From the NCBI RefSeq assembly GCF_002077945.1, contig NZ_LVYD01000052.1:1-64000 (forward strand): a stretch of DNA of 64,000 bases. The letters run 5' to 3'. Of the stretch, positions 11,551 through 64,000 are shown piece by piece. A model generated the notes under the pieces. That model worked only from the letters and a program-made list of their open reading frames with translations, was not told the DNA's origin and made no database searches. The position numbers and the translations under genes are program-made. Numbering within the stretch: position 1 is the first letter of the stretch; every line of letters begins with the position of its first letter. The DNA is from Niastella vici (GTDB taxonomy: Bacteria; Bacteroidota; Bacteroidia; Chitinophagales; Chitinophagaceae).

Positions 11551-11621
11551 TGCCCGATAGTATAATGGTAGTACGTCAGATTCTGGATCTGAAGGTTGGG
11601 GTTCGAGCCCCTGTCGGGTAA
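11551..11621 (+). tRNA. tRNA-Gln (anticodon CTG)
   Basis: A complete cloverleaf can be drawn. The acceptor stem is TGCCCGA (11551-11557) with TCGGGTA (11614-11620), including the U1-A72 pair typical of tRNA-Gln, and the discriminator is A11621. The anticodon stem is TCAGA/TCTGA around the loop TTCTGGA, giving anticodon CTG. The T arm is GGGGTTCGAGCCCC. The 3' CCA is not encoded and must be added. It has its own promoter at 11482-11512 and a terminator at 11636-11674. Confidence 0.95.
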
Positions 11622-34968: not shown

Positions 34969-35072
34969 GATGAAACGTCAATGGCAAAATTTTCATTATT
35001 ACATTCAGCGAAATGAAAATTTTGCCATTGTAAGTTCCATCTGGCCAAAAAAAAATAATATATTTTCAGATG
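34969..35072 (+). promoter_or_regulatory. Structured RNA leader sequestering the AMP nucleosidase start codon (copy A)
   Basis: In order: GATGAAAC (34969-34976); a perfect 19-bp hairpin, CAATGGCAAAATTTTCATT (34979-34997) with AATGAAAATTTTGCCATTG (35012-35030), loop 14 bases; GTTCCATC (35034-35041); an A-rich spacer; and CAGATG (35067-35072), whose ATG is the start codon. CATCTG (35038-35043) pairs with CAGATG, hiding the start; alternatively GTTCCATC pairs with GATGAAAC (7 of 8, one A-C mismatch), freeing it. The same arrangement, with compensating base changes, precedes aspartokinase at 63156-63270. It resembles a translational switch but I do not recognise the family. Confidence 0.75.
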
Positions 35073-35086
35073 AAAACAAAAGATGA
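34970..35086 (+). CDS. Possible leader peptide overlapping the AMP nucleosidase start
   Basis: An ATG at 34970, at the beginning of the RNA leader, opens a 38-codon frame (starting MKRQWQNF) that runs through both arms of the 19-bp hairpin and ends at TGA 35084-35086, 14 bases beyond the AMP nucleosidase start in another frame. The corresponding ATG in the aspartokinase leader also encodes MKR at its start. Whether it is translated is unknown; it could be chance, since the RNA sequence itself is the conserved part. Confidence 0.25.
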   Translation: MKRQWQNFHYYIQRNENFAIVSSIWPKKNNIFSDENKR

Positions 35087-35840
35087 AATCGTCAAAAACT
35101 GGCTGCCCCGTTACACCGGAGAGTCCCTCGAGAATTTTGGTCAATACATTCTGCTCACCAACTTCAGCGGTTATGTAAAAATGTTTGCCGAATGGAACAA
35201 TGTTCCCGTAATTGGCAACGACCGCCCCATGCAATGCGCCACTGCCGAAAACATTACCATCATCAATTTTGGTATGGGCAGCCCCACCGCAGCTACTGTT
35301 ATGGACCTGCTAACAGCCATTGAACCCAAGGCCGCCCTGTTCCTGGGTAAATGCGGCGGATTGAAAAAGCGCAACAACATCGGCGACCTCATTCTCCCCA
35401 TTGCAGCCATTAGAGGAGAAGGTACTTCCAACGACTATTTTCCACCCGAAGTGCCTGCCCTGCCGGCATTCGCCCTGCAAAAAGCCGTTTCCACCACCAT
35501 TCGCGATTATGGCATCGATTACTGGACCGGAACCGTATACTCAACCAACCGCCGGGTATGGGAACACGATGAGAATTTCAAGGAATACCTGCAAAAGATC
35601 AGGGCCATGGCCATTGATATGGAAACAGCCACCATCTTTTCTGTAGGCTTTTACAACAAGGTACCAACTGGTGCGCTGTTACTGGTAAGCGATCAGCCCA
35701 TGGTGCCCGAAGGCGTAAAAACCGAGGAAAGCGACAAAAAGGTTACCGCTAACTTTGTAGAACGTCATGTACGCATTGGCATCGACTCGCTGAAACAGCT
35801 GATCAATGATGGGTTAACTGTAAGGCATCTGAAGTTCTAA
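35070..35840 (+). CDS. amn: AMP nucleosidase
   Basis: A 256-residue protein of the nucleoside phosphorylase (PNP_UDP) superfamily. Landmarks are ENITIINFGMGSPTAATVMD, FLGKCGGLKKRNNIGDLILP, AIRGEGTSNDYFPPEVPALP, and AIDMETATIFSVGFYNKVPT with LLVSDQPMVPEG. These mark the short Bacteroidota AMP nucleosidase group, which hydrolyses AMP to adenine and ribose-5-phosphate; the E. coli enzyme is much longer with an extra N-terminal domain. The start codon is inside the RNA leader described at 34969-35072, so expression is likely controlled at translation initiation. Confidence 0.88.
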   Translation: MKTKDEIVKNWLPRYTGESLENFGQYILLTNFSGYVKMFAEWNNVPVIGNDRPMQCATAENITIINFGMGSPTAATVMDLLTAIEPKAALFLGKCGGLKKRNNIGDLILPIAAIRGEGTSNDYFPPEVPALPAFALQKAVSTTIRDYGIDYWTGTVYSTNRRVWEHDENFKEYLQKIRAMAIDMETATIFSVGFYNKVPTGALLLVSDQPMVPEGVKTEESDKKVTANFVERHVRIGIDSLKQLINDGLTVRHLKF

Positions 35841-62975: not shown

Positions 62976-63114
62976 TGGTGAATATTGATTCGCCCCGGGC
63001 CGGGGGTGCGCAACCATCCCGTAGCGTCCTGTAATGCAGTCGCAGCAAAGGCCTTCACCAAAAACGAGATGGCATTATCCTGCAAATACAACACACAAAC
63101 TACGATCTGTACCT

Positions 63115-63122
63115 TATCTTTG
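63115..63122 (+). promoter_or_regulatory. -7 box of the aspartokinase leader
   Basis: TATCTTTG matches TAnnTTTG exactly and is followed by CA. The -33 element is weak. Transcription would start near 63128, giving a leader of about 140 bases that contains the whole RNA structure at 63156-63270. Confidence 0.55.
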
Positions 63123-63155
63123 CAGCCCTTAATAAAACGCAACTAAATATCTTTA

Positions 63156-63270
63156 GATGAAACGAGCCAGGCAAAAATTTTCATTAACCCTTTAATGCAA
63201 TTTAATACAATGAAAATTTTTGCCTGGGGAGTTCCATCAGGCAAAAACAAAAAATTAATATTTTCTGATG
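63156..63270 (+). promoter_or_regulatory. Structured RNA leader sequestering the aspartokinase start codon (copy B)
   Basis: Same order of elements as the amn leader: GATGAAAC (63156-63163); a perfect 19-bp hairpin, CCAGGCAAAAATTTTCATT (63167-63185) with AATGAAAATTTTTGCCTGG (63209-63227), loop 23 bases; GTTCCATC (63231-63238); an A-rich spacer; and CTGATG (63265-63270), ending in the start codon. CATCAG (63235-63240) pairs with CTGATG. An alternative hairpin, TTTTTGCCTG (63217-63226) with CAGGCAAAAA (63238-63247), would instead free the start. Relative to copy A both the 19-bp stem and the start-codon stem have changed on both strands so as to keep pairing. Confidence 0.75.
63157..63195 (+). 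CDS. Possible leader peptide in the aspartokinase leader
   Basis: ATG 63157 to TAA 63195 encodes 12 residues (MKRARQKFSLTL) that run through the 5' arm and stop inside the hairpin loop. A ribosome here would open the 19-bp stem. In the amn leader the matching ATG also encodes MKR. Translation is unproven. Confidence 0.25.
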   Translation: MKRARQKFSLTL

Positions 63271-64000
63271 AAAATCATGAAGTTTGGCGGCACCTCGGTG
63301 GGCAAACCCGACAGAATGCACCAGGTAGCGCAACTGATAACCAAAGACGACAGTGAGCCAGTTATCGTAGTGTTGAGCGCATTAAGCGGCACTACCAATT
63401 CACTCGTAGCCATTGGCGAAGCTATGGCCGCCGGCAGTCGCGACCAGGCTAAAGAACTGATCGACAAACTGGAAGCCCATTACCAGTCATTTATAAAGGA
63501 ACTGGTGAAGACCGATAAAGCTTATGCCAAAGCCAGGAGCATCGTATCTGAACACTTCGAGTTCCTGAACATCATATTGAAGATCTCTTTCAGCGAAGCC
63601 CTGAGCAAGGATATTCTGGCACAGGGAGAATTGCTTTCTACCAAATTATTCAGCGTATACCTCGAAGAAAAAGGTATCGATCATATGCTGTTGCCCGCGC
63701 TCGAATTCATGACCATCGACGCACAGGATGAACCGCAGCTGAGCACCATCAAGGTGAAATTGTCGCGCATTCTGCAACAGAACAGCAATAAAAAATTATT
63801 TATCACCCAGGGCTATATCTGCCGCAACTCCCGTGGTGAGGTTGATAACCTGAAACGCGGTGGCAGTGATTATACAGCATCACTGGTAGCCGCAGCGGTG
63901 AATGCTTCGGTTTGTGAGATCTGGACCGACATCGACGGCATGCACAACAACGATCCCCGTATCGTTAAAAAGACCGTTCCTGTTGAACAGCTGAGTTTTG
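63268..64000 (+). CDS. Aspartate kinase, N-terminal part (3' end outside window)
   Basis: The frame from ATG 63268 is open to the window end (244 codons visible). It begins MKIMKFGGTSVGKPDRMHQV, the nucleotide-binding KFGGTSVG motif of aspartokinases, and continues with VLSALSGTTNSLVAIGEAMA, AQGELLSTKLFSVYLEEKG, ITQGYICRNSRGEVDNLKRG, GSDYTASLVAAAVNAS and IWTDIDGMHNNDPRIV, all family hallmarks. It phosphorylates aspartate, the first step to Lys, Met, Thr and diaminopimelate. Whether it is a single enzyme or a fused aspartokinase/homoserine dehydrogenase (ThrA) cannot be seen. The start codon lies inside the RNA leader at 63156-63270. Confidence 0.93.
   Translation, partial: MKIMKFGGTSVGKPDRMHQVAQLITKDDSEPVIVVLSALSGTTNSLVAIGEAMAAGSRDQAKELIDKLEAHYQSFIKELVKTDKAYAKARSIVSEHFEFLNIILKISFSEALSKDILAQGELLSTKLFSVYLEEKGIDHMLLPALEFMTIDAQDEPQLSTIKVKLSRILQQNSNKKLFITQGYICRNSRGEVDNLKRGGSDYTASLVAAAVNASVCEIWTDIDGMHNNDPRIVKKTVPVEQLSF

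What the first reader, a model, noticed from the sequence alone, without database searches (positions are those of the whole stretch)
63156..63270. Second copy of the same leader in front of aspartokinase, with compensating base changes
The aspartokinase start is preceded by the same ordered elements at nearly the same spacing as the amn leader. The 19-bp stem changes from CAATGGC.. to CCAGGC.. with the matching change on the other arm, and the start-codon stem changes from CATCTG/CAGATG to CATCAG/CTGATG. Two unrelated genes sharing structure but not exact sequence is evidence for selection on RNA pairing. An A-C mismatch in the outer GATGAAAC/GTTCCATC helix is kept in both copies.
Basis: seen in the sequence. 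Interest (0 to 1): 0.88.

Follow-up and report, generated by a model that had tools for sequence, protein, structure and literature searches.

The report
Mobile hairpin element at start codons
The matching hairpin in front of the aspartokinase and AMP nucleosidase genes is not an inherited gene leader but a roughly 100-base insertion element that has landed precisely on the start codons of many unrelated genes in this bacterium and its relatives, and whose internal guide sequence can pair with the start-codon site it sits on.

Summary
They belong to a dispersed family: 31 places in this genome (E<=0.01), matches in 71 of 244 genomes of the family. The element is an insertion. Relatives of the genus lack it at lysC (2 of 10 filled), amn (1 of 9) and malic enzyme (5 of 9), and empty sites run straight through ATGAA, the sequence found at both ends of the insert. 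In 75 of 85 loci the right-hand ATGAA is the start of a sense gene, against 44% expected for harmless sites. One guide (GTTCCATCTG) pairs with the left end (P1) and with the right end plus start codon (P3); both covary. Read on the bottom strand, this is the layout of IS200/IS605 single-strand transposons, and the A-C becomes a G-T wobble. No transposase was found beside it, and 3 element-bearing genomes show no Y1 transposase hit, so the mover is unknown. Hairpin mismatches show no G-U bias, which argues against RNA selection there. Guide and ends are well kept at orthologous sites, so a later cis role is possible.

The parts
63115..63122 (+). TATCTTTG, promoter -7-like motif of lysC; TATCTTTG is also present upstream of the element-free lysC genes of relatives
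   Evidence: the assignment as a Bacteroidetes -7 element is from recall.
63157..63267 (+). Inserted element at lysC, from the left ATGAAAC to CTG; the gene's own ATGAA follows
   Evidence: Empty sites in 8 of 10 genus genomes; R1 match 63150-63273, E 8.9e-17.
63157..63163 (+). Left end ATGAAAC; bottom strand GTTTCAT, candidate right cleavage site
   Evidence: Pairs with the guide; 83/85 at each of the two variable pairs; 99.3% of cells in A4.
63167..63185 (+). Hairpin P2, 5' arm (19 nt)
63209..63227 (+). Hairpin P2, 3' arm (19 nt)
63231..63240 (+). Guide GTTCCATCAG: pairs with the left end (P1) and with CTG-ATG at the right end (P3)
63241..63264 (+). A-rich linker
   Evidence: linkers are 71% identical at orthologous sites against 92% for guides, although the two lysC copies have the same linker (24/24).
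63265..63267 (+). CTG, the element's last three bases, pairs with the CAG of the guide
   Evidence: None of the 8 empty lysC sites has CTG here; covariation.
63268..63999 (+). Aspartokinase gene (cut by the window end); its ATGAA is the target copy
34970..35069 (+). Second inserted element, at amn: left end 34970-34976, arms 34979-34997 and 35012-35030, guide 35034-35043, CAG 35067-35069
   Evidence: Filled in 1 of 9 genus genomes; R1 match E 1.7e-20.
35070..35840 (+). AMP nucleosidase gene (amn)

Best explanation
A short, non-autonomous, palindromic insertion element of IS200/IS605-like design. On the bottom strand it reads: target TTCAT (the complement of ATGAA), element start CNG, linker of about 22 nt, guide CNNATGGAAC, hairpin P2, and an element end like GTTTCAT. 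Shown: it is an insertion; it lies between two copies of ATGAA; the guide is complementary to both ends and covaries with them. Inferred: a single-strand transposase uses the guide to pick both cleavage sites and the target, so insertion just 3' of TTCAT leaves the gene's start codon intact and merely lengthens the 5' UTR. Start codons of the common form ATGAA[A/T] are then natural harmless landing sites. P1 and P3 are guide-to-cleavage-site pairings rather than a regulatory RNA switch. The enzyme is unknown.
For: Filled/empty sites: lysC 2 of 10, amn 1 of 9, maeB 5 of 9; empty sites read straight through ATGAA. Dispersed family with variable copy number. P1 and P3 are paired in 99.3% and 98.6% of cells of 49 copies, with covariation score above all 500 shuffles. 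On 85 copies the two variable P1 pairs hold in 83/85 and 83/85 (shuffled means 57.3 and 71.8) and the two variable P3 pairs in 80/83 and 76/83 (70.9 and 64.9). The base outside the left ATGAA is mixed, as expected for the host flank of a one-sided target. The A-C mismatch, kept in 75 of 85, is G-T on the bottom strand; as DNA the lysC bottom strand's best fold contains P1 and the top strand's does not. No G-U bias in P2. Guides 5' of palindromes that pair with both cleavage sites, and tetra- or pentanucleotide targets, are described for IS200/IS605 (passages of PMC5934647, PMC8266576 and PMC6006769).
Against: No transposase gene was seen carrying or adjoining the element in the loci looked at (19 Y1 loci and two pairs of neighbouring copies); autonomous relatives elsewhere were not sought systematically. 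Three genomes with 5 to 14 matches (G112, G242, G258) have no Y1_Tnp hit at E<=0.01. Association with IS200-like TnpA is weak: 49 of 71 element-bearing against 89 of 173 others, p 0.015, and for the closer TnpA type outside the genus 10 of 67 against 14 of 173, p 0.15. The guide is longer than the tetranucleotides of IS608. Start codons are enriched beyond harmless insertion (75/85 against 44%). P3 covariation lies mostly in the element's own CNG; the target ATG hardly varies, so target choice by the guide rests on one case (L024, ACG with guide CGTCTG) and is not matched in L159 and L164. For amn the DNA top strand's best fold also holds part of P1 and P3. Only two pairs vary on both sides in each of P1 and P3, a number that shuffles often reach (306/500 and 112/500). 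Best identity between copies within a genome is 93% among the 25, 21 and 11 copies compared, so no very recent copy was seen.
Confidence: 0.6

Rival explanations
1. A cis-acting RNA leader. One anti-start-codon segment (CCAUC) pairs either with the decoy AUG at the element's left end (P1, true start free) or with the gene's AUG (P3, start hidden), so the leader tunes translation. It may have spread by insertion and been kept for this use.
For: 75 of 85 loci have it in sense on a start codon against 44% expected for harmless ATGAA sites. At orthologous sites the left end, guide and CNG are 95, 92 and 95% identical against 56% for the loop, 71% for the linker and 68% for the upstream flank. P1 and P3 exclude each other, and the RNA folds of 8 copies split 4 to 4 between them. 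Start of the abstract of PMC6847099, seen in a listing: initiation in Flavobacterium johnsoniae is tuned by mRNA structure.
Against: Copies are absent from many orthologues. Hairpin mismatches are G-T 19 against A-C 17. A-C in P1 is unfavourable in RNA. Downstream genes show no common pathway (by reading protein starts). One search used mostly copies picked by the model, which favours kept guides; of five maeB copies found through the gene, three keep the guide intact, one has one change and one is broken.
Confidence: 0.2
2. A mobile element moved by another enzyme, such as a tyrosine recombinase using ATGAA as crossover core, or an attC-like folded site.
For: ATGAA flanks the insert on both sides, as a crossover core would. 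Three of 27 genomes checked carry the element without a Y1_Tnp hit.
Against: It does not explain one guide covarying with both ends.
Confidence: 0.15
3. Palindromes with covariation made by template switching within hairpins, no function.
For: P2 arms change together at orthologous sites (L137/L165, L141/L166, lysC), as quasi-palindrome correction would produce (recalled mechanism).
Against: It cannot explain insertion at the same motif in unrelated genes, nor P1 and P3, whose partners lie roughly 25 to 70 nt apart.
Confidence: 0.03

Closest known systems
IS200/IS605 family ends (IS608 as model) and miniature derivatives
   Same: Hairpin with a guide on its 5' side (bottom strand); the guide pairs with both end sites; short fixed target kept on one flank; a non-canonical pair in the recognition helix.
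   Different: One hairpin and one 10-nt guide serve both ends; no tnpA seen inside or beside it; the target is the complement of a start codon. Natural IS608 uses tetranucleotides; extended pairing was engineered there (abstract and passages of PMC5934647).
REP elements and RAYT/TnpAREP transposases
   Same: Short dispersed palindromes with a tag at the hairpin foot, variable among genomes; RAYT-like genes exist in some of these genomes.
   Different: No GTAG/GTGG tag; the RAYT-like loci looked at are not flanked by the element; copies sit mostly on start codons.
CGTC-tagged palindromic repeats (PMC3733652, passages read)
   Same: Many copies in this genus have CGTC at the left hairpin foot; that paper reports no dedicated transposase and some Bacteroidetes hosts.
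   Different: Those stems are 8-9 bp; here 19-20 bp in most copies of the genus, and other subfamilies have CGAG or TGAG instead of CGTC.
Riboswitches and other structured leaders in Rfam
   Same: 5' UTR position, mutually exclusive helices, start codon in the last stem.
   Different: No match at gathering threshold; with E<=1 there are 22 hits, 16 of them microRNA models, the best (MIR476, minus strand, E 1.6e-5) at 36 bits against a gathering score of 80; not conserved among orthologues.

Membership tests
IS200/IS605-type miniature element | Guide 5' of a hairpin, complementary to both end sites | tested here: met
   (bottom-strand reading).
IS200/IS605-type miniature element | Insertion beside a short fixed target, seen as clean empty sites in relatives | tested here: met
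   Three loci; target ATGAA = TTCAT on the bottom strand.
IS200/IS605-type miniature element | Y1 transposase inside or beside the element, or an autonomous relative with the same ends | tested here: not met
   19 Y1 loci of the genus: best R1 match E 0.015 (L118:162-266, over 1 kb from the gene), none flanking; two pairs of neighbouring copies enclose ordinary genes. No wider search for autonomous relatives. So it is not filed as a proven member; it works like one.
IS200/IS605-type miniature element | Single-strand, strand-specific transposition (lagging-strand template) | not testable with these tools
   Only indirect: G-T on the bottom strand.
REP/RAYT | GTAG or GTGG tetranucleotide at the hairpin foot | tested here: not met
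   Alignment A4, (by eye).
REP/RAYT | Copies flanking a RAYT gene | tested here: not met
   Loci L127-L135: no R1 match better than E 3.9; the guide-like 7- to 8-mers printed look like coding sequence, judged by eye.
Riboswitch or cis-regulatory RNA | Presence in front of orthologous genes of close relatives | tested here: not met
   lysC 2 of 10, amn 1 of 9, maeB 5 of 9.
Riboswitch or cis-regulatory RNA | Compensatory changes in the helices | tested here: met
   such changes are also expected of guide pairings.
Riboswitch or cis-regulatory RNA | G-U preferred over A-C in the helices (RNA-strand signature) | tested here: not met
   19 G-T against 17 A-C in P2; 112 against 111 in the looser count.
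Riboswitch or cis-regulatory RNA | Ligand binding or regulation in vivo | not testable with these tools
   Needs experiment.

The most novel reading that the evidence does not exclude
A self-installing translational switch. A mobile element chooses start codons by pairing its guide with them, and after insertion the same guide toggles in the mRNA between a decoy start codon (its own left end) and the true one, so transposition itself plants a ready-made start-codon control in front of unrelated genes.
Probability: 0.2. Interest if true: 0.92.

Novelty: new variant of a known kind. Interest (0 to 1): 0.7.

Why it matters
It gives filled/empty gene pairs in which the effect of a 5' UTR insertion can be measured in a phylum that does without Shine-Dalgarno sequences. 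It may be a natural case of the extended guide-target pairing so far engineered in IS608. It is also a warning that covariation between unrelated genes can come from a transposon's end-recognition logic rather than from a riboswitch.

Tried and rejected
Rfam scans of the window and of 63100-63300 with loose thresholds: no credible family. The TnpA in the aro operon as mover: present in all 10 genus genomes, but the association across 244 genomes is weak, and for the close type not significant outside the genus. RAYT-like genes as mover: no element beside those looked at. Pairs of copies about 1.7 and 3.6 kb apart (G242, G203) as composite transposons: only ordinary genes in between. Target-site duplication that copies the sixth base: rejected, because the sixth bases of the two ends are not linked in the list (read by eye). 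Short upstream ORF as attenuator: ATGAAATGA begins many copies outside the genus, but no frame is common to the family; not pursued. Viral contigs: 7 exact matches of a 17-mer, none an element by R2. Functional grouping of the downstream genes was judged only by reading protein starts. Strand bias relative to replication was not tested.

Results against the main reading are listed in the Against line. Rows dropped: 144 matches were reduced to 87 by keeping the best of overlapping matches, then to 85 distinct rows; A4 used 49 copies chosen by hand for diversity; the maeB copies of G005 and G007 and the mutY pair were left out (wrong automatic ends or too divergent), and its 13 pairs come from 9 genes and are not independent. 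The models contain the 3' ATGAAA, so the share of copies ending in ATGAA is somewhat favoured by detection. One search scored only 15 candidates per genome, so its counts are lower bounds.

Full report
What is there. The lysC leader at 63157-63267 and the amn leader at 34970-35069 have the same parts in the same order: ATGAAAC, a perfect 19-bp hairpin (P2), GTTCCATC[A/T]G, an A-rich linker, C[T/A]G, and the start codon ATGAAA. GTTCCAT can pair with the left ATGAAAC (P1, with one A-C mismatch), and CATC[A/T]G can pair with C[T/A]GATG at the gene start (P3). The two pairings share CAT and exclude each other. RNA fold z-scores are -5.10 (lysC) and -5.95 (amn); two of the six other copies folded are weaker (-1.88 and -3.03).

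It is a family. An inner-stem pattern found 15 places in the genome with 0 control matches. A covariance model from 10 copies (R1) found 43 matches at E<=0.01 in this 10-Mb genome (listed); merging overlapping matches on the two strands gives 31 distinct places, 23 of them at E<=1e-6. R1 matched 20 of 59 genomes, among them all 10 of the genus. A broader model (R2) matched 71 of 244 genomes and 43 of 101 genera of the family, with only 15 candidates scored per genome. R1 found no credible match in 80 named loci around malic-enzyme starts of other genera (2 weak matches away from the start, E 0.6 and 0.86). The genus itself is unnamed in the data; one genome's size recalls Niastella koreensis, which is recall only.

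It is an insertion. At lysC, 2 of 10 genus genomes carry it. G007, empty, reads ...AATATTCCCAG-ATGAAAATC; G005, filled, reads ...AATATTCCCAG-ATGAAAC...TTTTCTG-ATGAAAATC. At amn, 1 of 9 carries it. At malic enzyme, 5 of 9 carry it: empty ...AATAACTG-ATGAAAAAAGAATTG (G003), filled ...AATAACTG-ATGAAAC...TTTCAG-ATGAAAAAAGAACTG (G002). ATGAA thus stands at both ends and once in the empty site. The gene keeps its start codon, and the 5' UTR grows by roughly 100 to 110 nt.

Where it lands. In 75 of 85 loci examined, the right-hand ATGAA starts an open frame of at least 60 codons (raw list). Of 23 loci fetched with R2, 20 do so by the same rule (one, L330, is the same place as L186, and one starts with GTG); a further one lies before the short gene rpmH. 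In 464 kb of this genome there are 1072 ATGAA[A/T] sites, of which 100 are near in-frame gene starts and 125 intergenic (ORFs of 60 aa or more; 37 to 41% with stricter cut-offs), so harmless insertion alone predicts about 44%. The excess (binomial p about 4e-17, treating copies as independent) means start-directed insertion, better survival at starts, or in part detection, since the models contain the 3' ATGAAA.

Pairing evidence. In 49 copies P1 and P3 are paired in 99.3% and 98.6% of cells, above all 500 shuffles in that measure and in covariation score; slid controls reach at most 39.1% for P1 and 36.3% for P3. Only two pairs per helix change on both sides, and shuffles often reach that count (306/500 and 112/500). 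P2 is less kept, 83.9%. P3 variants include CATCTG/CAGATG, CATCAG/CTGATG, CATCCG/CGGATG, CATGTG/CACATG, CATGCG/CGCATG and CATGAG/CTCATG; P1 variants include AAAC/GTT, AATC/GAT, AAAT/ATT and AAGC/GCT. In 75 of 85 copies the fifth P1 position is A opposite C.

Which strand works. The A-C of the top strand is G-T on the bottom strand, a true wobble. As DNA, the lysC bottom strand's best fold contains P1 and the top strand's does not; for amn the bottom-strand best fold has P3 and the top-strand best fold has part of P1 plus P3. In P2, enclosed mismatches are 19 G-T, 17 A-C and 65 others, so there is no excess of G-U as RNA selection would leave. Together these favour a DNA-level structure on the bottom strand, although the evidence at P1 is a single position and at P2 is the absence of a bias.

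Mechanism. On the bottom strand the order is TTCAT (gene side), CNG, linker, guide, hairpin, GTTTCAT, mixed host base. IS200/IS605 transposons insert beside a short target and choose both cleavage sites by guides lying 5' of the end hairpins, including non-canonical pairs (passages of PMC5934647, PMC8266576 and PMC6006769 found by term search). This element fits that logic with one hairpin and one guide shared by both ends. Steps inferred and not shown: single-strand excision, the enzyme, and target choice by the guide.

The missing enzyme. Each of the 10 genus genomes has one hit to an IS200-like TnpA (NCBIfam transpos_IS200); in this genome it lies between a DAHP synthase/chorismate mutase gene and aroB, named by reading the ORFs. 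Its Y motif YIEKQEEHH fits the signature given for subclass 1.2 in PMC6006769, a class of Cyanobacteria and Bacteroidetes generally without IS200 end structures (sections 13, 18 and 25 read). Across 244 genomes, 49 of 71 element-bearing and 89 of 173 other genomes have a TnpA-like hit (p 0.015); for close relatives of the aro-type protein outside the genus it is 10 of 67 against 14 of 173 (p 0.15). Of 8 genomes with at least 3 matches and no such hit, 3 (G112, G242, G258) also have no Y1_Tnp hit at E<=0.01. The mover is therefore not identified.

Cis role. At 9 genes with two or three orthologous copies (13 pairs), identity is 95% for the left end, 92% for the guide and 95% for CNG, against 56% for the loop, 71% for the linker, 68% for the upstream flank, 83 and 78% for the hairpin arms and 81% for the coding flank. 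Most copies were found by the model, which favours intact guides. In the five maeB copies found through the gene, three guides are intact, one has one change, one is destroyed. So constraint after insertion is likely but not proven. If real, the simplest RNA reading is a choice between a decoy and the true start codon.

Verdict. Insertion nature: about 0.95. IS200/IS605-like guide mechanism: about 0.6. A regulatory RNA as main reason for the pairing: about 0.2. Searches for a published description listed none that I recognised as this element; only open-licence papers are held, and apart from passages or sections of PMC3733652, PMC6006769, PMC2864571, PMC5934647 and PMC8266576 I saw listings and abstract starts only.

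Noticed in passing
L117:1474-1902 (G000:C46:19865-20290): IS200-like TnpA (subclass 1.2-like Y motif, read by eye) between a DAHP synthase/chorismate mutase gene and aroB; one homologue in each of the 10 genus genomes, so probably domesticated.
   Followed up: partly
L130:505-1032 and 1387-1989: Two RAYT-like genes in tandem in G002 (the first judged by eye); the first lacks the NHLH motif at the expected place (LMPSYITI instead of LMTNHLHM).
   Followed up: no
L012, L006, L008, L153, L163, L307, L314: GC-rich small palindromes such as CCCGGCTTGTCGGG or CCTGCCTGCCGGCAGGCAGG lie inside several copies, between hairpin and guide or within the guide: nested palindromic insertions.
   Followed up: no
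L334 (G100:C3:1257321-1257395): A minimal copy with a short hairpin (GTCACGC/GCGTGAC) stands directly before rpmH (ribosomal protein L34, named from its protein start), showing that hairpin sequence and length are free.
   Followed up: no
L146 and L158: The same start codon in two species carries copies of different P1 subfamilies (AATC/GATC and AAAC/GTTC) with different loops and linkers: repeated insertion or replacement at one site.
   Followed up: no
G147:C1: Eleven Y1_Tnp genes with 145-aa open frames and nearly equal scores, which looks like a recent IS200-type expansion in a genome that also carries the element.
   Followed up: no
11551-11621: tRNA gene, the only Rfam match in the window at gathering threshold.
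   Followed up: no
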